Source: Photorhabdus heterorhabditis
GTDB taxonomy: Bacteria > Pseudomonadota > Gammaproteobacteria > Enterobacterales > Enterobacteriaceae
DNA: 64,000 nucleotides
Assembly: GCF_018448905.1 (NCBI RefSeq)
Contig: NZ_RCWA01000007.1
Location: 1-64,000 of the forward strand
Direction: 5' to 3'
This document shows, piece after piece, positions 20,834 through 61,916 of the stretch; the first letter of the stretch is position 1, and each line of letters begins with the position of its first letter. The translations under genes were made by a program, and so were the position numbers. The notes under the pieces were generated by a model. It searched no databases. It worked only from the letters and a program-made list of their open reading frames with translations, and was not told the origin of the DNA.

Positions 20834-21882
20834 CCCCCGGAATAATAAAATCAACAAGTTGCAGAGTTCATTTACATGATTAATTAAATAGATTAGTTTA
20901 ACTATTAAATTAATAAATCTTTGTATTAATATGTTTCTTATACCTTATACATTAATAAGAAAATATTTATAGTTACTGAAATATAACACCATCTAAAGAA
21001 ATGTAATTAAAATTTTTCACTATTCAATAATTCAGAAAATCCATCATATTTAGGCTAAATATTATGCGATTTGATAAAATTGATCGGGTGAAAATTACGA
21101 AATAGGATAATTACAATTTACTTATTGTTAAAACTATTAGTTCAACATTTACCTGACCATTCTGGGTATCAACTCCCTCGTCATGGTTCTGATTTACAGA
21201 CAACGAGAGTCCATGAATTAGCTAGCTGACTATCATTACCCTATCCCGATTAGTTTGACACAGAATTTTTACTGTCTTATATATCCATAATTTGAACAGG
21301 GAAAAATGGTTATAATCAATTAATAAAACACCAATGAGTAGTACCGCAGGACATGATTTTATGGAATGCTATTTGCAAAATAGCCAACAAGGAAGCAATG
21401 TGACAAGGAAATTATTTTTGGCAAAAAAATAAAATCTAATATCAACATTTGCAATAAAAAAATGGCGAGAAATTTTCTATCTGTGACAAAATCAAACTAC
21501 ATTTATGCATTTATCAATCAATTAATTTATTGAAAAATACAGATTACAGTTAAAAATTTAGAACAATAACTATTTGCCATTATGGCTATTTTTAAAAAAG
21601 AACAAATAACTATATAAACTGTCTCCTACAGAATCATATAGCATTAAAAGCATTGATATCCCAGACGATTATTTATCATATATAATGACACCAAATAATA
21701 GATAGATTAATAAAACAGAAACTTGATTTATATAAGAAAAAATATCAGATATATTTATATCAATATTAAAAAAATAACAACTAACCCTACAGAATTCATT
21801 AAAATAAAATCAATATATATTGCATTTCATTATAAATCGCATATAATCAATAGAGCTTATTACAATATCATTGGACTATAAA
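20834..21882. other. AT-rich intergenic region with unassigned coding remnants
   Basis: About 1.05 kb between cyaR and the next gene, visibly poorer in GC than the flanking core. A plus-strand frame near 21076-21231 contains a protein-like run (LPDHSGYQLPRHGSDLQTTR) bounded by stops and without a start. I cannot name it. The rest shows no gene, tRNA or clear terminal repeats. It appears to be the left edge of a small accessory island. Confidence 0.4.
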
Positions 21883-22710
21883 ATGGCAAGTTTATCTATA
21901 AAAAAAGAAGATAGTATAAAGGCTGCTCTTATTGATTGGTTAATAAAACGAGACGAAATAAATGATAATGCAGTATTAATCAATGAACTCCCTATTGCAA
22001 ACTTCAGTAGACGCGTTGATCTCGCGGTTGCAAATGGTAAACTCCATGCATATGAAATTAAAAGCGACTCTGACAGTCTAGCCAGACTTGAAGGACAAAT
22101 ATCCACATACAGACTCTACTTTGATAAAGTGACATTAGTTTGTGCACCAAAGTTTACTGAAAAAGCCTTATCAATTCTACCCATGGATATTGAAATATTA
22201 GAAATCAAGAAAAACAATAGTGGAGTAACTAACACTTTTATAAAAAAGAGACGCGGACGTACATGCAAAATTTCTGAAGATAGGTTTATTTTTTCCTTTG
22301 TCGAAAAAAAAGAAATCGTCAAATTTGTCAGAAAAAATGGTTATACATGTCATCCCTCTGAGATGAGAGAGAATATATATAATTTAACAAAAAACATCTC
22401 AATTGAGAAGAAAAGAAATTTCACAATAAATTATTTAAAGATAAAATATAAAATTTCTTTTGAAAATTTCATAAACAATAAGAATTCTAGTTCAACTTCT
22501 GCTGAAAATATTTCATTATTGAGCAATAATAAAATCAAAAGGAATCTTAATAAAGTTAACAAAGATGAAGAACTTAAACATATTGATATTTCAGTTTATC
22601 AAAAACCCATAAATTCCCATGCTATAGATATATCGAAAAATTTATCACTTATAGGTATTAAATCTCATACTCCTATCTATATTATTCCAAGAAAGAAAAT
22701 TGCCTCTTAA
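21883..22710 (+). CDS. PD-(D/E)XK nuclease-like, sce7726 family
   Basis: A 275-residue protein whose first 120 residues resemble the sce7726 family. Asp46 in RRVDLAV and the E58-I-K60 triad in AYEIKSDSDSLARLEGQ form a PD-(D/E)XK restriction-like core, followed by YRLYFDKVTLVCAPK. The C-terminal half is Lys/Asn/Ser-rich, low complexity and not recognised. ATG 21883 is preferred over TTG 21871; neither has a strong ribosome-binding site. Base composition is very AT-rich. It is convergent with a Beta_protein/sce7725-type gene, the known neighbour of this family in other bacteria. The function is unproven; a role in phage defence or DNA processing is inference. Confidence 0.7.
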   Translation: MASLSIKKEDSIKAALIDWLIKRDEINDNAVLINELPIANFSRRVDLAVANGKLHAYEIKSDSDSLARLEGQISTYRLYFDKVTLVCAPKFTEKALSILPMDIEILEIKKNNSGVTNTFIKKRRGRTCKISEDRFIFSFVEKKEIVKFVRKNGYTCHPSEMRENIYNLTKNISIEKKRNFTINYLKIKYKISFENFINNKNSSSTSAENISLLSNNKIKRNLNKVNKDEELKHIDISVYQKPINSHAIDISKNLSLIGIKSHTPIYIIPRKKIAS

Positions 22711-22720
22711 AGAGGCAATT
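22698..22720. terminator. Shared hairpin between the convergent sce7726/sce7725 genes
   Basis: AATTGCCTCTT (22698-22708), a single central A and AAGAGGCAATT (22710-22720) form a perfect inverted repeat that includes the sce7726 stop codon. On the minus strand it is followed by TTTCTTTCTT, so it should terminate the opposing gene in particular. Confidence 0.7.
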
Positions 22721-22744
22721 GCAAAAAATCATAGCAATATATTA

Positions 22745-23836
22745 CTATTCAACAGAATTATATTCATCAGTATCATCATCATTGATATGAGACAATACAC
22801 CATTTTCTATAAACCTAATCATTCTTTCTATATGTAAATTTACTCGTACCGAAATCCATTTAGATGGCGACTTAAAGCGATTCACATTACCTTCACTAAC
22901 AGATTTAATAATTTCTGTACCCCAAACCTCCAATGAATCATCCCATCCCTCATCTGTAACAATATCTTTTGCTGCTAATTGATATAGTTCATCTCTCTGA
23001 TCACTACCAGATCGACGCTCAAAACGCCAAACTCCTGGTGTAGGATAATCTATTCGCGCAACGAACTTCGCATAACTTCCTGGATAAAATTCTCCATGAA
23101 TACTTGCTGCATCACCATATAAAGCAATTTTTTCACCGCCTACTGCAAGATAGTTTTGCCACTCCAACATGCTAATAGCTCCACTTTCTTTACCATATTC
23201 AGCAAATGTACGTGGAAAACTGGTACCAGAACTAACGATTTCTATTCTAGGATCAATATTCCTAAGCATATTAATTCCTCTAATAGTTGCATCTAAACAT
23301 AGATCTTGACGAGAGCTATCTATTTGCCCAACATCCAATATAAATAATACATTACTTATATCATCAACTACTGATGCTGCCATTGTCGCAGCCAGTAACT
23401 CATGCGACTTTAACGGATTAATTTTAACTACAAACCTACCAAAATAAGATTCTAACTTCTCAAGCTGCTTGACATAATCCCGTTGCCCCAAATCCTTATG
23501 GAAAATCGCTGCGGGAATAATTTTATTATATTTTCCTTTCTGATTTTTTAAAAAATCAATCCAATTACTACAATGTTTATCAGATAAATACAATGAATCT
23601 GAATCGATACATTTCAAAACTGGATCATTTGATATTTCTATAATTGATTCATTATTAAAAGAATCAAACCATTTATCAATAGCTGAATCAGCATCCTGTC
23701 TACCTTTAAGCTTTGTCAGAGACACAACCGGTAAAAACTTACTTTTTGTTGACTCACCGATATTACTAACACCCTCTAACTCAGACTGTCTGGTTCTTAT
23801 AGATGGAAAATACCTATAGTCCGAAAATTTTTTCAT
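22745..23836 (-). CDS. Beta family (T4 beta-like, sce7725-type) protein
   Basis: A 363-residue protein resembling the Beta_protein/sce7725 family: N-terminal YFPSIRTRQSELEGV with P-loop-less TIM-barrel-like strands, then VVSLTKLKGR, central FILDVGQIDSS, and the late block YGDAASIHGEFYPGSYAKF and WRFERRSG. The biochemical activity is unknown; the family is named after a phage T4 protein. The start ATG 23836 has a good AAAAGGAG ribosome-binding site. It converges on the sce7726-type gene with a 34-nt gap and a shared hairpin. It is AT-rich compared with neighbours, consistent with horizontal acquisition. Confidence 0.7.
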   Translation of the reverse strand: MKKFSDYRYFPSIRTRQSELEGVSNIGESTKSKFLPVVSLTKLKGRQDADSAIDKWFDSFNNESIIEISNDPVLKCIDSDSLYLSDKHCSNWIDFLKNQKGKYNKIIPAAIFHKDLGQRDYVKQLEKLESYFGRFVVKINPLKSHELLAATMAASVVDDISNVLFILDVGQIDSSRQDLCLDATIRGINMLRNIDPRIEIVSSGTSFPRTFAEYGKESGAISMLEWQNYLAVGGEKIALYGDAASIHGEFYPGSYAKFVARIDYPTPGVWRFERRSGSDQRDELYQLAAKDIVTDEGWDDSLEVWGTEIIKSVSEGNVNRFKSPSKWISVRVNLHIERMIRFIENGVLSHINDDDTDEYNSVE

Positions 23837-27759: not shown

Positions 27760-28383
27760 ATGAAGTTTGATTTGACCACAGCTTATACCCTATCAGTAAC
27801 CCTTTTAGGCTCATCCGGGACAGTGCTTGCAACTACAGCAGATACCGCCAGTAAATCATCAACGATGACTACAGCCAACACATCAACTGGTTATAGCAAT
27901 CACCCAGATAGCTTGTGGGCAACATTCAACAATAATGTTGCCCTCACCTGGGATGCGCCCAACAATGAATTTTATCTTCCAGTAATTACCTGGCATAACA
28001 GATATACCTACGATAAAGAGAAGACCGATAAATATAATGAACGCCCCTGGGGTTTCGGTTATGGTAAATACCGCTATGACAGAGACAATGATTGGCATTC
28101 CCTCTACGCAATGGCTTTTATGGATTCTCATAACCGCCTGGAGCCCATTATTGGCTATGGATTTCAGAAAATGTGGATACCGGGTGATTTAGATGGGTTC
28201 CGACTGGGTGTTGGTTTTACTCTGAGTGTTACAGCTCGTCACGATTATTACTATGTCCCTATTCCACTCCCATTACCCCTGTTCTCTGTCGAATATGATC
28301 GACTATCATTTCAGGGAACATACATTCCGGGCACATATAATAATGGCAACGTATTCTTCGCCTGGTTACGCTGGCAATGGTAA
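27760..28383 (+). CDS. pagP: Lipid A palmitoyltransferase PagP
   Basis: Outer-membrane beta-barrel enzyme that moves palmitate from phospholipid to lipid A, giving resistance to cationic antimicrobial peptides. The mature region matches E. coli PagP: His79 in ITWHNRYTYDKEKT and Asp122-Ser123 in AMAFMDSHNRLEP correspond to the catalytic His33, Asp76 and Ser77. The C-terminal TYIPGTYNNGNVFFAWLRW is the last barrel strand. The protein has 207 residues against about 186, because a Ser/Thr-rich linker of about 20 residues sits between the signal peptide (cleavage after VLA near 24) and the barrel. A PhoPQ-regulated gene in relatives. Confidence 0.94.
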   Translation: MKFDLTTAYTLSVTLLGSSGTVLATTADTASKSSTMTTANTSTGYSNHPDSLWATFNNNVALTWDAPNNEFYLPVITWHNRYTYDKEKTDKYNERPWGFGYGKYRYDRDNDWHSLYAMAFMDSHNRLEPIIGYGFQKMWIPGDLDGFRLGVGFTLSVTARHDYYYVPIPLPLPLFSVEYDRLSFQGTYIPGTYNNGNVFFAWLRWQW

Positions 28384-28444: not shown

Positions 28445-29824
28445 TTATCCTTGGTTCATTGTTTTCAATCTATCCCGATGGGAACGAGATATCAGGAATC
28501 CAATCCATAAAACACTAATCCAGAATGGCATCAGAATGACTGAAATACGGATACTTTCTGTCATCAAAATAATGACAAGAATAAAGGCAAGGAAAACTAA
28601 ACACAAATAATTACTGAATGGATACCAGAATGCTTTAAACGATGGTTCTACACCCTCTTTAACTTTCTGTGCCCGAAATTTTAAATGAGCCATACAAATC
28701 ATGACCCAGTTAATAACCAGCGTTGTTACCACCAATGCCATTAGCAATTCAAGGGCTTTACCTGGCATCACATAGTTAATTAATACACCAATTGAGGTTA
28801 CTAACGCAGATATCACGATAGCCCTGATCGGAACTCCATTCCTATTAATTTTCGTTAAAATCTTAGGGGCATTACCTTGCTTTGCTAAACCATACAGCAT
28901 ACGGCTGTTACAATATACGCCGCTGTTATAAACAGACAATGCAGCAGTCAGAACAACAATATTCAGAATATTCGCCACCCAGAAACTATCCAGATTATGA
29001 AAAATCATCACAAATGGACTTTCACCTTCAACAACATAGTTCCACGGATAAAGCGACAGTAGAACAGTCAGAGAACCGATATAGAAAATCAGTATCCTAT
29101 ATACCACCTGGTTAGTTGCTTTAGGAATGCTGATTCGTGGGTTCTCTGCTTCAGCAGCTGTAACACCAACCAATTCCAGTCCACCAAAAGAGAACATAAG
29201 CACAGCCATTGCCATAATAAGACCAGAAGCCCCATTAGGCATAAAACCACCATATTGCCAAAGATTAGTGATACTGGCCTGTGGACCTCCATTACCACTG
29301 ACTAATAGATAAGCGCCAAAAATAATCATACAGATAATTGCAGCAACTTTAATAATTGCAAACCAAAATTCTGTTTCACCATATAATCGAACATTAATTA
29401 AATTTACGCTATTGATTAAAACAAAGAATACCATCGCAGATACCCAGGTCGGAATATCAGGCCACCAGTAATGAATATACATTCCCACAGCCGTTAATTC
29501 TGCCATTCCGACCAGAGTAAACATTACCCAGTAATTCCATCCCGATAAGAAACCGGGAAACTCTCCCCAATATTTATATGCAAAATGACTAAACGATCCA
29601 GCTACTGGTTCTTCAACAACCATCTCTCCCAGCTGACGCATAATCAAAAATGCGATAAAACCTGCAACCGAGTATCCTAAAAGTACGGAGGGACCTGCCA
29701 TTTTTATGGTTTGTGCAATACCGAGAAACAACCCAGTCCCGACAGCTCCCCCTAAGGCAATAAGCTGAATATGTCGGTTTTTTAAACCGCGTTTAAGTGT
29801 TGATTGCTGCGATTGTCCTGCCAT
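28445..29824 (-). CDS. pheP: Aromatic amino acid permease (PheP/AroP type)
   Basis: APC-superfamily proton symporter of 459 residues with 12 predicted helices. It has the signature start LKRGLKNRHIQLIALGGAVG and MRQLGEMVVEEPVAGSFSHF. Details such as GWNYWVMFTLVGMAELTA, NVRLYGETEFWFAIIK and SPFVMIFHNLDS are closer to phenylalanine permease PheP than to AroP. Start ATG 29824 follows an AGAGGA site; a frame opening six codons earlier has no better signal. The substrate between phenylalanine and general aromatic is inferred. Convergent with pagP. An ERIC cluster begins 60 bp upstream, in the promoter region. Confidence 0.85.
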   Translation of the reverse strand: MAGQSQQSTLKRGLKNRHIQLIALGGAVGTGLFLGIAQTIKMAGPSVLLGYSVAGFIAFLIMRQLGEMVVEEPVAGSFSHFAYKYWGEFPGFLSGWNYWVMFTLVGMAELTAVGMYIHYWWPDIPTWVSAMVFFVLINSVNLINVRLYGETEFWFAIIKVAAIICMIIFGAYLLVSGNGGPQASITNLWQYGGFMPNGASGLIMAMAVLMFSFGGLELVGVTAAEAENPRISIPKATNQVVYRILIFYIGSLTVLLSLYPWNYVVEGESPFVMIFHNLDSFWVANILNIVVLTAALSVYNSGVYCNSRMLYGLAKQGNAPKILTKINRNGVPIRAIVISALVTSIGVLINYVMPGKALELLMALVVTTLVINWVMICMAHLKFRAQKVKEGVEPSFKAFWYPFSNYLCLVFLAFILVIILMTESIRISVILMPFWISVLWIGFLISRSHRDRLKTMNQG

Positions 29825-29883
29825 CTTGTCCTCTTGCTGCAACTTTTATTTTGTTATGAGTGGGGAAACAACCGATTCCCATT

Positions 29884-30010
29884 TATACCTGTTATCTTTC
29901 AAGTTGCCTCTTTGTTGGCTGCACTCACTCACCCCGGTCACAGAGTTATCTATGCTCCCGGGGATTCGCTCCCTTGCCGTCGCGATGCATCTTGAAATCT
30001 ATTGGGTATA
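29884..30010 (+). repeat. ERIC repeat, first of a tandem/nested cluster
   Basis: Full-length copy from TATACCTGTTATCTTTCAAG to GGGTATA, with centre CTCCCGGGGATTCGCTCCC. Its final TA is shared with the first TA of the next ERIC, as expected if the second element inserted at that TA. Confidence 0.95.
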
Positions 30011-30259
30011 TACCTGTTATCTTTCAAGTTGCCTCTTTGTTGGCTGCACTCACTCACCCCGGTCACAGAGTTATCTATACCCTTCATCTTTCAAGCTGCT
30101 GCTTTGTTGGCTGCGTTCACTTACCCCAGTCACATAGTTATCTATGCTCCTAGGGATGCATTCACTTGCCGCCGCGCTGCAACTTGAAATCTATTGGGTA
30201 TATGCTCCCGGGATTCGCTCCCTTGCCGTCGCGATACATCTTGAAATCTATTGGGTATA
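30009..30259 (+). repeat. ERIC repeat split by another ERIC
   Basis: The left part (30009-30077) runs to GTTATCTA in the usual centre. The right part (30201-30259) resumes TATGCTCCCGGGATTCGCTC and ends GGGTATA. The two parts together make one normal ERIC with one G missing in the centre. The break falls exactly at a TA dinucleotide. Confidence 0.93.
30076..30202 (+). repeat. ERIC repeat inserted within an ERIC
   Basis: Complete element TATACCCTTCATCTTTCAAG to ATTGGGTATA. It differs in sequence from its host copy (AAGCTGCTGC and CTCCTAGGGATGCATTCAC), so it is not a simple local duplication. It is flanked by a repeated TA, the apparent target duplication. Confidence 0.93.
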
Positions 30260-30261
30260 TC

Positions 30262-30279
30262 TGCTTTGCTCAAAGCAGA
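30262..30279 (-). terminator. Small hairpin after mgrB
   Basis: CTGCTTTG and CAAAGCAG (about 30262-30279) form a short stem 90 nt downstream of the mgrB stop on the minus strand, next to the ERIC cluster. T-run support is weak. Confidence 0.35.
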
Positions 30280-30368
30280 TAAAATACTAGCCTTAAAAGG
30301 TGGATACTGAACATATATGTTAGCACAGATACAGCAAGGGAGAATGACTGATGAGTATCAACAACTAA

Positions 30369-30512
30369 TCAGAAAGGAAGATATCGGGTCACAAAACAGA
30401 TACCTGAATCAAACTTTTCACCCTGATCACAGTAACGATCCAAAGCCAACAGGTACAAGAACAGACATATTCCAAGTAATACTAAGATTGCAATGGTTTT
30501 TTTTATGTCCAA
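30369..30512 (-). CDS. mgrB: MgrB-like PhoQ inhibitor, small membrane protein (TTG start)
   Basis: A 47-codon frame on the minus strand encodes one membrane helix (IAILVLLGICLFLYLLAL) and a short periplasmic tail YCDQGEKFDSGICFVTRYLP. Length (47) and all three cysteines (C16, C28, C39), plus CDQ and SGIC..., coincide with E. coli MgrB, the inner-membrane feedback inhibitor of PhoQ. It probably starts at TTG 30512, with AAGGAAA placed 6 nt upstream; no ATG is available in frame. The non-ATG start and small size make it easy to miss. phoPQ lies 16 kb away. Assignment is from sequence pattern and not tested. Confidence 0.85.
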   Translation of the reverse strand: MDIKKTIAILVLLGICLFLYLLALDRYCDQGEKFDSGICFVTRYLPF

Positions 30513-30826
30513 TTCTATTTCCTTAAGCTTAGTCAGCACTCAATACATAAAGAATAAATTCAAGAAATTATATTTTACAGTAATGAAAATAAGAAAAATA
30601 TCCATCCGGTGCTTCTGTTGTGGAGAAATCACACTGATACCGTACCCTCTGTCAGTAAATGCGCCGAAACGAATTAAACAAGTACTGAATTAGGGATTCT
30701 ATTCACTAAAACAAAAAAATCAATTGTCACATTTAGTTACAATCTCAACCACGATGCCAACGCTTTGTCATATTTAAAAAAAGTTGTGTATACTTCTTTT
30801 CACTTTCAACCAGAACGAAATTGTTA
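30513..30826. other. Divergent promoter region between mgrB and the AraC-type gene
   Basis: 314 bp, AT-rich. On the plus strand TTGTCA (30765-30770), an 18-bp spacer and TATACT (30789-30794) form a good sigma-70 promoter about 33 bp before the regulator's ATG. Short open frames in this stretch have no ribosome-binding site or recognisable similarity. Confidence 0.55.
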
Positions 30827-31210
30827 ATGCCACAGGATAATCACTTAGCACTTGTATACGCTCTCAGCAAATGGATTGAGAATCACCTTGGCCGGGTAAT
30901 CCATCTGGAGGAACTGGCAGCTTACTCTGGCTATTCGCTTTGGCATATGCAGAAAATATTCAAGGAAATTACTGGAATTTCTCTTGGCAAATATATCCGC
31001 CAACGACGTCTGGCGGGTGCTGTTCACCTTCTAAGAAACAGCTCTTTGTCTATTTTCGATATCGCCCTGGATTTTGGCTTTGGTTCACAGTCTCATTTTA
31101 CTTACATGTTCCGCAAAGAATATGGCATAACACCTTATGATTTCCGGCAGAACCCAGATATTGAGCTTGAGGTAAAACTACCTCTTCATTTTGCCAATAG
31201 CTGTTCATGA
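30827..31210 (+). CDS. AraC/XylS-family regulator of MarA/SoxS/RamA type
   Basis: A 127-residue protein consisting only of the two helix-turn-helix DNA-binding units, as in MarA, SoxS and RamA: first HTH around LEELAAYSGYSLWHMQKIFK (residues 26-46), linker helix, then IALDFGFGSQSHFTYMFRKE (about 79-98) with the AraC signature ending GITPYDFRQ. There is no effector domain, so activity is probably set by its amount. Start ATG 30827 is preferred to an upstream TTG. Which MarA paralogue it corresponds to cannot be decided. Likely targets are efflux and stress genes (family knowledge). Confidence 0.85.
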   Translation: MPQDNHLALVYALSKWIENHLGRVIHLEELAAYSGYSLWHMQKIFKEITGISLGKYIRQRRLAGAVHLLRNSSLSIFDIALDFGFGSQSHFTYMFRKEYGITPYDFRQNPDIELEVKLPLHFANSCS

Positions 31211-46468: not shown

Positions 46469-46595
46469 AATACCCAATAGATTTCAAGATGCATCGAGAC
46501 GGCAAGGGAGCGTATCCCCGGGAGCAGAGATAACTCTGTGACCGGGGTGAGTGAGTGCAGCCAACAAAGAGGCAACTTGAAAGATAACAGGTATA
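46469..46595 (-). repeat. ERIC repeat upstream of phoP
   Basis: From AATACCCAATAGATTTCAAG to ACAGGTATA, centre GCGTATCCCCGGGAGCAGAG. It ends 59 bp before the phoP start, so it falls inside the phoPQ promoter or leader region. Its right end also pairs with a nearby ACCTGTTATC (46610-46619). Confidence 0.93.
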
Positions 46596-46654: not shown

Positions 46655-47323
46655 ATGCGGATATTGATTGTTGAAGACAATATGTTATTACGCCACCATT
46701 TAACGGTACAACTTCGTGACACGGGTCATCTGGTTGATGCTGCCGCAAATGCTAAAGAAGCTGATTACTATCTGGCAGAGAGCGAACCCGATATCGCTAT
46801 CGTTGACCTTGGTTTGCCCGGAGAAGACGGTTTGAGTCTGATCCGTCGCTGGCGCCAGAAAGATGAGAAACTTCCTATTCTTGTTCTGACCGCTCGTGAA
46901 AGCTGGCAGGAAAAAGTCACCGTTCTTGATGCAGGGGCGGATGACTATGTCACCAAGCCATTTCATCTTGAGGAAATCATTGCCCGTATGCAGGCACTCC
47001 TGCGCCGTAATAATGGGCTGGTTTCCCAAATTATTGAATTTCCCCCGTTCAGAATTGATCTGTCACGCAAAGAATTAACAATTTATGGTGAAAGTGTCAA
47101 ACTGACGGCTTTTGAATATAAAATTGTTGAAATATTGATGTGCAATAGCGACAAAATTGTCACTAAAGAGTCATTAATGCGTCAATTATATTCCGATGCT
47201 GAACTGCGCGAAGGCCATTCCATTGATGTTTTAATCGGACGGTTAAGAAAGAAAATACAAGATATTTGGCCTTATGAAGCTATCGTGACTGTTCGCAGCC
47301 AAGGCTATCGCTTTGATGTATAA
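46655..47323 (+). CDS. phoP: Response regulator PhoP
   Basis: OmpR-family regulator of the magnesium/antimicrobial-peptide response. 222 residues. The receiver domain starts [20 protein letters not shown], the phospho-Asp51 is in [12 protein letters not shown], and the Lys is in [15 protein letters not shown]. The winged helix ends [10 protein letters not shown], as in E. coli PhoP. It follows purB but behind a terminator and an ERIC. Its stop overlaps the start of phoQ. In Photorhabdus, PhoPQ is known to control LPS modification genes and virulence; pagP and mgrB in this window are likely members of the circuit (inference). Confidence 0.96.
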
Positions 47324-48806
47324 AATTTTAATGTGCAAAAAAGTGCTTAAACGTAAAAAGCAACCTTTTTCACTCCGTACCCGGTTTCTAATGGCGACTG
47401 CCGCAGTCATTCTGGCTCTGACAATGTCTTATGGTATTGTTGCTATTGTCGGTTACCTGGTCAGTTTTGACAAAACCGCTTATACACTATTACGTAGTCA
47501 GAGTAACTTGTTTTTCAGCCTTGCTCAGTGGAACAACAATAAGCTGGATATTTCAGTACCACCCAATTTCACACTAAATAACCCGTCATTAGTTCTGATT
47601 TATAACAACAAAGGCACTATCCTTTGGCGTCAACGCCATATCCCAAAAGTAGAAAGATCTATCCCGAGTGAATGGTTGAAGGAAGATGGTTTATATGAAC
47701 TGGATACTGACCTGAAAAGCAGCCGAGACTTGTTAAAAGACTCGACCAATATGCAGGGGCAATTAGGCAAACTTAATACTCTCAACGAAAATGAAGATAA
47801 CGAGCTAACCCATTCCGTTTCCGTTAATAGATATCATTCGACAACACATCTGCCAGAATTGACTATCGTAGTGATTGATACCATTCCACAGGACTTACAG
47901 AAAACAGTTCTGGTGTGGGAATGGTTCGGCTATGTATTGATTGCCAACCTTATTCTGGTTATTCCATTAATCTGGCTGGCTGCTCACTGGAGTTTACGGC
48001 CAATCAAATCGCTTATTCATCAGGTCGGCTCATTAGAAAAAGGTGAGCGAGAAAAATTGGATGAGAATCCACCGACTGAGCTACGGGGATTAGTTCGTAA
48101 CCTTAATGTTCTGCTCAATAATGAACGCAACCGCTATACAAAATACCGCACAACACTGGCCGATCTGACACACAGCCTGAAAACACCGCTAGCTGTTTTA
48201 CAATCAACTCTCCGTTCTTTACGCAGCAGTAAGCAGATGACCATTGAACAGGCAGAACCTATCATGCTTGAACAAATAGGCCGTATTTCTCAGCAGATAG
48301 GTTACTATTTGCACCGGGCCAGTATGCGCGGTGATCATAGCATCATTATGCGGGAAGTTTCTTCTGTTCCAGCTTTACTGGATAGTTTGTGCAGCGCTTT
48401 AACAAAAGTCTATCAACGCAAAGGCGTCAGTCTCACGTTAGATGTATCGCCGGAAATCACCTGGCTTGGTGAAAAAAATGACTTTATGGAAGTCATGGGC
48501 AATGTCCTGGAAAATGCCTGTAAGTATTGCCTTGAATTTGTCGAGATCTCCGCAACTATGGATCATAATTCGGTAATGATCATTGTTGATGACGATGGAC
48601 CTGGTGTCCATATTAATAAACGGGAAATGATTTTCCAGCGGGGTCAACGTGTCGATACCTTACAACCGGGTCAGGGGCTTGGATTATCCATTGCTTCTGA
48701 AATCATTGAGCAATATAAAGGAGATATCAGTATCAGTGACAGTCCGCTTGGCGGCGCCAGAATTTGCGTTATATTCCGTTGCCAGCAAGTTAATGATGAC
48801 GATTAA
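47316..48806 (+). CDS. phoQ: Sensor histidine kinase PhoQ
   Basis: Inner-membrane sensor of low Mg2+, acid pH and cationic peptides. From ATG 47316 it has 496 residues. It has two membrane helices (about 27-49 and 205-225), a periplasmic PAS-like sensor containing an acidic stretch ([11 protein letters not shown]), a HAMP region, His286 in [15 protein letters not shown], and ATP motifs [13 protein letters not shown] and [17 protein letters not shown] start at ATG 47334 (MCKKVLKRK) is also possible. It overlaps phoP by 8 nt. Confidence 0.95.
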
Positions 48807-60080: not shown

Positions 60081-61058
60081 ATGCAAAGTGTCACTAATAA
60101 TAATATCACTTCCGATAAAATTTCCTCTAAAAGTATTTCGATGCAAATTCTGCATGAGTTGTTGCAATATCGCCGACACCTAACCGATTCAGAAAGAGAT
60201 TTAGCTCTGGAAGAAGAAATCATTAAAGGTGTACAATTACCTAGAATTGAATATTTTATCAAAAATAAAAAGCCTATAGAATTTATTTTACCCGCATTCC
60301 CAACCAAATCGCCAAACAAAAATAAAGTACTTGGTACCGCTCCCGATATGGCAGAACGCTTGTCTTTGAGTTTTCTTAATTCTCTATGCCAACGTATCCA
60401 GCTTTATTATCCTCCTGGTGCACGTATTATCATTTGTTCTGACGGACATGTTTTCGGTGATCTAATTCGTGTCAAAGACGACGTTATCAGCCAATATCAT
60501 GAAGATATTAAACAATTACTCCATGAAATGGGTGCTATCAATTTAGGTACATTTAATCTCAACGATGATAAGGAACTCTGCGAGCATAGCGATAATTTTA
60601 ACTTACAGAGAGATATGCTAGTAAAACATTACGCCCGCTCTGAAGAATCCATCAAAGATGAATTGTTACAAAATAATGATGGATTGCAACTGTATCGTGC
60701 AGTCACCCGCTTTTTATATGAAGACAGCTTATTACCTGGTTATACCGGATCAAACAATGCCTTGCAAAAAGATGCCAAACAAAGAGCTATCGGTGTTATT
60801 CAACGAAGCTGGGCATGGGGAAGTTTATTAGATACTCATTTCCCAAAATCTATACGTCTGTCTATTCATCCTCAACCAGCAGACAGTATTAAATTCGGTA
60901 TTCATATGATGCCAACCCGGGATGACTGGTTAACCCCTTGGCATGGTGTCGCAGCCAATGTAAATGGGCAATTTATACTTATGAAACACAAAGAAGTTCA
61001 GATGATGGGCGGAAAATTAGTCAATATTCATGGAAAACCCAGCCATTATGTAATTTAA
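60081..61058 (+). CDS. isnA: Isocyanide synthase IsnA (PvcA/DIT1 family)
   Basis: Converts the amino group of L-tyrosine (or Trp in some homologues) to an isonitrile using ribulose-5-phosphate, the first step of rhabduscin-type metabolites. 325 residues. PvcA/DIT1 motifs include FILPAFPTKSPNKNKVLGTA near residue 74, DMAERLSLSFLNSLC, PPGARIIICSDGHVFGDLI and the C-terminal HGVAANVNGQFILMKHKEVQ. The start ATG 60081 has only a weak Shine-Dalgarno. isnB follows after 12 nt. In Photorhabdus such a pair makes the rhabduscin aglycone, an inhibitor of insect phenoloxidase; substrate assignment here is by homology. Confidence 0.9.
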   Translation: MQSVTNNNITSDKISSKSISMQILHELLQYRRHLTDSERDLALEEEIIKGVQLPRIEYFIKNKKPIEFILPAFPTKSPNKNKVLGTAPDMAERLSLSFLNSLCQRIQLYYPPGARIIICSDGHVFGDLIRVKDDVISQYHEDIKQLLHEMGAINLGTFNLNDDKELCEHSDNFNLQRDMLVKHYARSEESIKDELLQNNDGLQLYRAVTRFLYEDSLLPGYTGSNNALQKDAKQRAIGVIQRSWAWGSLLDTHFPKSIRLSIHPQPADSIKFGIHMMPTRDDWLTPWHGVAANVNGQFILMKHKEVQMMGGKLVNIHGKPSHYVI

Positions 61059-61070
61059 AGGAAAAAGATA

Positions 61071-61916
61071 ATGACAGAATTAAATAAATTTCAGACAGAA
61101 GAGATCATACCTTTTGGTCTAAAAATCACACCGCAATATTCCGATCAACATATTGATTCTCTACCAATAGAACAACTAAGAGAACTGACTAAAAAACATA
61201 ATCTGCTTATATTGCGTGGTTTCAAATCTAACTTATCCGATCGCGAAAAATACGAAGAATATGCCCGTAGTTGGGGAGAAATAATGATGTGGCCATTTGG
61301 TGCCATCTTAGATGTCCGTGAACACCAAGATGCTACCGACCATGTCTTTGATAACACCTATATGCCACTTCACTGGGATGGTATGTATAAACCGACAATT
61401 CCCGAATTTATTATGTTCCATTGTGCCCATGCACCTGAAAGTGACCAAGGAGGCAGGACAACCTTTGTCAATACCCGTCGTGTTATTGCTAATGCTACCC
61501 AACAGCAATTAGAACAATGGAAAAATATATCTGTTACTTATCGTATTAATAAAGTCACTCATTATGGTGGAGAAGTTCATTCCCCTCTATTAGAAGAGCA
61601 TCCAGACGGAAACGGATTCGTTATCAGATATAACGAGCCAGCAGTAGATGGTGAAAAATTCCTTAATAAACATGCTATTGAATACCATAATATCAACTCC
61701 GATCAGGTAGATAAATTCCAGCAAGATTTTATAAATATACTGTACGACAAGCGTCACTTATATGCTCATGCCTGGCAAAAAGGTGATCTCGTGATTGTGG
61801 ATAATTTCTCTCTACTGCATGGACGTGAAGGATTTACTTCCAAATCAGAACGGCATTTACAGAGAATCCACATTCAATCTGATCCGGTCTTTAATAATCA
61901 AGCGTTAAGATCATAA
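61071..61916 (+). CDS. isnB: Fe(II)/2-oxoglutarate oxygenase IsnB (PvcB/TauD family)
   Basis: Oxidatively decarboxylates and desaturates the tyrosine isonitrile to a vinyl isonitrile. 281 residues. The iron triad is His101 and Asp103 in MPLHWDGMYKP and His250 in NFSLLHGREGF, with the 2-oxoglutarate-binding Arg just after (RHLQRIHIQ). The start follows AAAGGAAAAA 12 nt downstream of isnA, so the two form an operon. The glycosyltransferase that completes rhabduscin is not in this window, consistent with its separate location in Photorhabdus. Confidence 0.9.
   Translation: MTELNKFQTEEIIPFGLKITPQYSDQHIDSLPIEQLRELTKKHNLLILRGFKSNLSDREKYEEYARSWGEIMMWPFGAILDVREHQDATDHVFDNTYMPLHWDGMYKPTIPEFIMFHCAHAPESDQGGRTTFVNTRRVIANATQQQLEQWKNISVTYRINKVTHYGGEVHSPLLEEHPDGNGFVIRYNEPAVDGEKFLNKHAIEYHNINSDQVDKFQQDFINILYDKRHLYAHAWQKGDLVIVDNFSLLHGREGFTSKSERHLQRIHIQSDPVFNNQALRS

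What the first reader, a model, noticed from the sequence alone, without database searches (positions are those of the whole stretch)
30369..30512. Hidden mgrB with a TTG start next to an ERIC cluster
The minus-strand 47-codon frame reproduces the length and all three Cys positions (16, 28, 39) of E. coli MgrB, the CDQ and SGIC motifs and the single helix. It lacks an ATG and is easily missed by gene callers. With phoPQ and pagP in the same window it would complete the PhoQ feedback loop. If real, it shows that Photorhabdus keeps MgrB control of PhoQ, relevant to peptide resistance in insects.
Basis: partly seen in the sequence, partly recalled or inferred. Interest (0 to 1): 0.75.

Follow-up and report, generated by a model that had tools for sequence, protein, structure and literature searches.

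The report
Photorhabdus MgrB, with its usual weak start
The short frame is the Photorhabdus copy of MgrB, a tiny membrane protein that brakes the PhoQ sensor; it was already known in this genus, and its unusual start codon is common in this gene family rather than an exception.

Summary
Minus-strand frame 30369-30512 encodes a 47-residue MgrB with Cys 16, 28 and 39 at the E. coli positions; it passes the Pfam (64 vs 27 bits) and NCBIfam (70.4 vs 40 bits) models. One copy was found in its genome. The TTG is the same codon in 13 of 13 Photorhabdus genomes, with AAGGA 7-8 bases upstream and no in-frame ATG. phoP, phoQ and pagP lie in the window.

It is not a discovery: Lippa and Goulian (2009) list MgrB of P. 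luminescens TTO1, and Yadavalli et al. (2020) tested the P. laumondii protein in E. coli.

Two leads are added. The start is no oddity: of 66 genera examined, 49 have at least one locus where ATG is impossible and 3 have ATG as best start, while neighbouring genes start almost always with ATG. And a PhoP-box-like site about 180 bases upstream is the best matrix match in 10 of 13 Photorhabdus genomes (clear by plain consensus in 5) but degenerate in this genome's clade, so PhoP control of mgrB is unproven here.

The parts
30369..30512 (-). mgrB, 47 codons plus stop, TTG start at 30512
   Evidence: Pfam PF13998 64 bits (cut-off 27), NCBIfam NF007635 70.4 bits (cut-off 40); frame and TTG conserved in 13 of 13 Photorhabdus genomes
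30520..30524 (-). ribosome-binding site AAGGA, 7 bases from the TTG
   Evidence: sequence; spacing 7 in 12 and 8 in 1 of 13 genomes
30566..30579 (-). conserved TGTAAAATATAATT block, possible -10 of a nearer promoter
   Evidence: block found in 13 of 13 genomes (one with a base change in its first half); TATAAT in the 3 genomes of this clade, TATCAT or TATCGT in the other 10; its role is inference only
30675..30691 (-). PhoP-box-like site, degenerate in this genome (AATTCA-N5-TGTTTA)
   Evidence: counterpart of TGGTTA/TAGTTA/TAATTA/TAATGA-N5-TGTTTA in 10 of 13 Photorhabdus genomes; in the window no better than shuffles (fraction 0.86)
29881..30260 (.). cluster of ERIC-like repeats downstream of mgrB
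   Evidence: direct repeats of 131 and 54 nt and inverted ends of 24-30 nt; 3 of the window's 9 core matches
30821..31210 (+). divergent AraC-family regulator (SoxS/Rob-like)
   Evidence: Pfam HTH_18 2e-23; below the cut-offs of the 25 NCBIfam families shown of 36; next to mgrB in 12 of 12 named Photorhabdus and 8 of 8 Xenorhabdus loci
28445..29842 (-). AroP-like amino-acid permease downstream of mgrB
   Evidence: Pfam AA_permease 2e-124; same place in 12 Photorhabdus and 8 Xenorhabdus loci
27760..28383 (+). pagP, lipid A palmitoyltransferase
   Evidence: NCBIfam NF008271 277 bits, cut-off 155
46655..47323 (+). phoP
   Evidence: aligned end to end with E. coli PhoP, identity not counted
47313..48806 (+). 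phoQ (true start uncertain)
   Evidence: 287 of 486 E. coli positions identical; H277, Y32, Y197, N202 and R219 kept

Best explanation
The frame is mgrB. It makes a 47-residue inner-membrane protein: short cytoplasmic N-end, one transmembrane helix, and a periplasmic tail with a C28-C39 pair. The protein binds PhoQ in the membrane and lowers its kinase output, acting as a brake on the PhoPQ system. Shown here: family membership, conservation, topology as a model, co-occurrence with phoPQ, and retention of several PhoQ contact residues. Known from orthologues: PhoQ inhibition. Inferred: that translation starts at the TTG, and that PhoP drives the gene in this strain. The TTG most likely gives modest translation (general knowledge, not tested), as GTG does in other mgrB genes.
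For: Pfam and NCBIfam MgrB models pass their cut-offs; an HMM without Photorhabdus/Xenorhabdus gives 68.9 bits against 11.8 for the next frame. One copy in G000, and one in each of 12 other Photorhabdus genomes. TTG and AAGGA in 13 of 13. Gene order shared with Xenorhabdus. C28, C39, G37 and F34 are kept, W20 is Tyr and W47 is Phe; W20Y is reported active in E. coli (PMC10576120, passages). PhoQ keeps Y32, Y197, N202 and R219, with I38V and L204I. The model of residues 2-47 has a helix at model positions 2-28 and a second at 35-42, mean pLDDT 76.4. In print: P. luminescens TTO1 MgrB in Fig. 6 of PMC2789325 (passages); P. laumondii MgrB expressed in E. coli, where all but the E. ludwigii orthologue reached the membrane and most orthologues inhibited PhoQ (PMC8404706, passages).
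Against: D31 and F24, and possibly Q22, which matter in E. coli MgrB, are Gly, Leu and Leu here; K2/K3 are Asp/Ile, with Lys at 4 and 5. The window's own PhoP-box-like site is no better than chance. The main text on the P. luminescens PhoP regulon, studied by RNA-seq, does not contain the word mgrB (PMC5333078; section 7 read); its tables were not seen. The tail of the model has lower confidence (block means 61 and 57). No expression data for this strain.
Confidence: 0.95

Rival explanations
1. The gene is translated from the upstream GTG at 30539, giving a 56-residue form.
For: The frame is open back to that GTG in the window and in P. asymbiotica L002.
Against: In the other 11 of 13 genomes the open frame is only 51 or 54 codons, so a stop lies between that place and the TTG; the AAGGA site is placed for the TTG.
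Confidence: 0.03
2. mgrB is a decaying or silent relic in this clade: the PhoP site is degenerate, and in P. asymbiotica extra repeat-like sequence lies between promoter region and ribosome site.
For: Degenerate first half-site in L001-L003; about 125 extra bases, ERIC-like by eye, in the leader of L002.
Against: The protein is intact in all 13 genomes, with third-position changes dominating, and is identical in the window and P. asymbiotica; ribosome site and start are unchanged.
Confidence: 0.07
3. Chance hydrophobic open frame.
For: Short frame without ATG.
Against: 68.9 bits against a best of 11.5 in five shuffles; changes concentrated at third positions.
Confidence: 0.001

Closest known systems
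MgrB of Photorhabdus luminescens/laumondii TTO1 (Lippa and Goulian 2009, PMC2789325; Yadavalli et al. 2020, PMC8404706)
   Same: Same gene in the same genus; the 12 named Photorhabdus loci are 91-98% identical to the window protein.
   Different: Another species; the window's clade has Arg26, where the other 10 of 13 genomes have Ser, and a degenerate PhoP-box-like site. The TTO1 sequence itself was not fetched.
MgrB of Escherichia coli K-12
   Same: 47 residues, Cys 16/28/39, CDQ, SGIC, non-ATG start.
   Different: 13 of 47 positions identical; GTG not TTG; different neighbours (cspC, yobF, yebO, yobH, kdgR); W20, Q22, F24, D31 and W47 replaced.
MgrB of Xenorhabdus
   Same: Lies between the same permease and regulator in 8 of 8 loci; 53-65% identical.
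   Different: One extra residue between the cysteines in the 5 aligned; TTG one codon further out in the 7 read; no PhoP box seen by eye in 7 upstream stretches.

Membership tests
MgrB (PF13998 / NF007635) | Profile match above curated cut-off | tested here: met
   64 vs 27 bits and 70.4 vs 40 bits
MgrB (PF13998 / NF007635) | About 47 residues, one transmembrane helix, short periplasmic tail | tested here: met
   47 residues; model helix 2-28, mean pLDDT 76.4, weaker in the tail; membrane insertion itself not tested
MgrB (PF13998 / NF007635) | Essential periplasmic cysteines C28 and C39 | tested here: met
MgrB (PF13998 / NF007635) | Aromatic residue at position 20 (W or Y) | tested here: met
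   Y20; W20Y active in E. coli per PMC10576120 passages
MgrB (PF13998 / NF007635) | Other residues important in E. coli: D31, F34, G37, W47, F24, possibly Q22, K2/K3 together (not strictly defining) | tested here: inconclusive
   F34 and G37 kept; W47 is F; D31, Q22, F24 and K2/K3 replaced
MgrB (PF13998 / NF007635) | phoPQ in the same genome | tested here: met
   phoP and phoQ 16 kb away
MgrB (PF13998 / NF007635) | Transcription activated by PhoP | tested here: inconclusive
   PhoP-box-like site is the best matrix match upstream of the gene in 10 of 13 genomes, but not in the window's clade; against shuffles by plain consensus it is clear in 5 of 13
MgrB (PF13998 / NF007635) | Binds and inhibits PhoQ | not testable with these tools
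   P. laumondii orthologue expressed and assayed in E. coli (PMC8404706, passages)
ERIC repeats | About 127-bp imperfect palindrome in many copies (recalled) | tested here: inconclusive
   131-nt copies with 24-30 nt inverted ends, 9 core matches in the window; not compared with a reference ERIC sequence

The most novel reading that the evidence does not exclude
mgrB keeps a weak, non-ATG start codon by selection across the enterobacterial family (GTG in one large group, TTG in Photorhabdus, Xenorhabdus, Sodalis-like and other genera; ATG in only a few), so poor initiation is a conserved gain setting of the PhoQ brake. In the P. asymbiotica-like clade the PhoP site has also decayed while a TATAAT lies nearer, so there the brake may be constitutive rather than feedback-driven.
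Probability: 0.25. Interest if true: 0.55.

Novelty: already known. Interest (0 to 1): 0.25.

Why it matters
In P. luminescens, a small CAMP-resistant subpopulation that depends on PhoPQ and pbgPE is tied to virulence. That work reports positive autoregulation of phoP, found no conserved PhoP box upstream of phoP or pbgPE, and does not mention MgrB (PMC5333078: abstract start, passages and section 7). An intact MgrB, with a PhoP-box-like site at mgrB in most Photorhabdus examined, is a negative arm to examine in that heterogeneity. The common non-ATG start may help to explain why mgrB is often missed in annotation (that it is missed is a remark of PMC2789325) and suggests a measurable gain control.

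Tried and rejected
PhoP box by simple consensus: TGTTTA-N5-TGTTTA with up to 3 mismatches gives 138 hits in the window against 127 expected, so a hit means nothing by itself. Against shuffles, the best consensus site upstream of mgrB has a fraction of 0.025 or less in 5 of 13 Photorhabdus genomes (L007, L008, L010, L012, L013) and 0.095-0.86 in the other 8; in L002-L004 and L006 the best consensus hit was not the aligned site. A matrix from 25 genera, chosen because their upstream DNA fits a GTTA-N6-GTTTA pattern and so biased to that form, ranks the window's site only 137 of 127930 for the box alone; with spacer, the best upstream match ranks 203 and is another site. pagP (rank 244) and phoP (rank 57) give no clear site either. 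Where the matrix does pick the aligned site, its scores are modest (-2.9 to 3.9 bits).

Promoter and terminator scan: 2 promoter-like sites against 2.3 in shuffles, no terminator. Rfam on 29700-31000: 4 sub-threshold matches (best 52.2 bits against a gathering score of 96, RF02818), all on the ERIC-like repeats.

A selected weak start is not proven: mgrB neighbours are nearly uniformly ATG, but both patterns could be simple inheritance, GTG and TTG fall in large groups of genera, two genera clearly use ATG (L045-L049 group and L191/L192), and no tree was built.

The gene pair at 21871-23836 was only scanned with Pfam.

Full report
What is there. The minus-strand frame 30369-30512 translates to 47 residues and a stop, beginning with TTG. 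Pfam MgrB matches residues 19-47 at 64 bits (cut-off 27). The NCBIfam equivalog 'PhoP/PhoQ regulatory lipoprotein MgrB' matches residues 1-47 at 70.4 bits (cut-off 40). An HMM built from 78 distinct MgrB sequences, leaving out Photorhabdus and Xenorhabdus, gives this frame 68.9 bits. The next of 1821 frames in the window reaches 11.8 bits, and the best frames of five shuffled windows reach 6.6 to 11.5.

Conservation. The protein was found in all 13 Photorhabdus genomes (the window's own and 12 others), once each, in a search of 39 genomes in which 17 had a match. Variable columns fall 3/5/15 on codon positions 1/2/3. The TTG is the same codon in 13 of 13, with AAGGA 7 bases upstream in 12 and 8 in one. 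No ATG is in frame in any of them. A further named genome, P. akhurstii L107, also has the TTG. The longer reading from a GTG (30539 in the window) is open only in the window and in P. asymbiotica L002; in the other 11 the open frame is 51 or 54 codons.

Neighbourhood. In the 12 named Photorhabdus loci the order is fbaB, thiD, csp gene, pagP, aroP-like permease, mgrB, divergent AraC-type regulator, except that fbaB was not matched in L103. In eight Xenorhabdus loci mgrB lies between the same permease and regulator; pagP was matched in 2 of the 8. In E. coli mgrB lies beside yebO, yobH and kdgR instead. phoP and phoQ lie about 16 kb away in the window; PhoQ is identical to E. coli PhoQ at 287 of 486 positions. 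The window's neighbour genes are closest to P. asymbiotica and P. australis.

Function. Two papers settle most of it. Lippa and Goulian (PMC2789325; passages seen) describe MgrB as a feedback inhibitor of PhoQ, list P. luminescens TTO1 among the homologues and note that mgrB is often missed in annotation. Yadavalli et al. (PMC8404706; passages seen) expressed MgrB of P. laumondii and seven other species in E. coli. All but the E. ludwigii protein reached the membrane and most inhibited PhoQ; in the passages seen P. laumondii is not singled out as weaker or stronger. Of the residues important in E. coli, C28, C39, F34 and G37 are kept; W20 is Tyr (W20Y reported active, PMC10576120, passages) and W47 is Phe. 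D31, Q22, F24 and K2/K3 are replaced. PhoQ keeps Y32, Y197, N202 and R219 and has I38V and L204I. The AlphaFold model of residues 2-47 has a long helix (model positions 2-28) and a short second one (35-42), mean pLDDT 76.4, with lower confidence in the tail. That PhoQ is inhibited in this strain is therefore inferred from orthologues.

Start codon. PF13998 was found in 189 of 392 genomes of the family, in 67 of 154 genera. I had loci of 112 places from these 67 genera; one (L084, internal stop) was not recovered, leaving 111 loci in 66 genera. Seven of the 111 repeat a place under a second id (L018, L019, L037, L039, L043, L044, L054). Per locus, repeats included: no in-frame ATG possible, with GTG best 50 and TTG best 31; an ATG in frame but a ribosome site at least as good at GTG 8 or TTG 10 (L184 is a tie); ATG best 7; degraded 3; no start near 2. 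Per genus: in 49 of 66 at least one locus has no ATG possible; in 3 ATG is best, and one of these (L036) reads TTA at the usual place. Control: of 59 named loci given, mgrB aligned at its N-end in 53 and is GTG in 53; six loci of this set are Xenorhabdus or Sodalis-like (L120, L131, L146, L159, L166, L172) with TTG, very likely the six not aligned. In the same loci the neighbours are ATG wherever the N-end aligned: cspC 58, yobF 54, yebO 56 (2 not aligned there), kdgR 57, yebQ 53 (2 not), htpX 50, yobH 45 (6 not), mntP 36 (2 not), yobD 14 (1 not), manZ 4 (10 not), prc 3 (44 not); rlmA 52 of 53; proQ and manY never aligned there. Of 46 complete annotated E. coli genes around and including mgrB, 38 start with ATG, 6 with GTG and 2 with TTG. 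For Klebsiella, one paper numbers mgrB from its GTG start codon (PMC6054975, passage) and another reports colistin-resistant isolates with a changed initial codon (PMC9334626, passages). I found no paper stating the family-wide pattern in the searches (listings and a few passages seen). Whether the pattern is selected or simply inherited is not decided.

Promoter. In 10 of 13 Photorhabdus genomes the best match upstream to a matrix from 25 other genera lies about 180 bases before the TTG, as TGGTTA, TAGTTA, TAATTA or TAATGA, five bases, TGTTTA. It leads the next site by more than 10 bits, though its own scores are modest (-2.9 to 3.9). In the three genomes of the window's clade (window L001, P. 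asymbiotica L002, P. australis L003) the first half reads AATTCA; the site is not the best match in L001 and L003, and in L002 it lay outside the stretch scored. By plain consensus the site in the window is no better than shuffles (fraction 0.86), and only 5 of 13 genomes have a fraction of 0.025 or less. A conserved block at about -68 (-193 in L002) holds TATAAT in those three and TATCAT or TATCGT in the other ten. L002 also carries extra sequence, ERIC-like by eye, between this block and the ribosome site; the core pattern did not match it. PhoP control is therefore plausible in most Photorhabdus and doubtful in this clade.

Verdict. MgrB, correctly spotted, already known in the genus. The TTG is normal behaviour for a gene that mostly avoids ATG; that pattern and the clade-specific promoter change are the only fresh leads.

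Noticed in passing
window 46469-46505 (-): An ERIC-like core lies about 150 bases upstream of phoP (46655), so a repeat sits in the phoPQ promoter region.
   Followed up: no
L002, between the -10-like block and the ribosome site of mgrB; L011, upstream of the PhoP-box-like site: Extra ERIC-like sequence, judged by eye from the alignment, in the mgrB leader of P. asymbiotica and further upstream in L011.
   Followed up: partly
L021, L067, L023: L021 and L067 have no start codon near the usual place; they share with L023 a TTG 21 codons upstream, which may mean a longer N-end.
   Followed up: no
L084, L093, L195, L196: MgrB frames that look broken or degraded (internal stop, short or altered frame).
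   Followed up: no
window 21871-23836: Beta-protein family gene (PF14350, 132 bits) beside a 279-residue protein without a Pfam match.
   Followed up: partly
window 60081-61916: DIT1_PvcA and TauD-family genes side by side, resembling an isonitrile-type biosynthesis pair (label recalled).
   Followed up: partly
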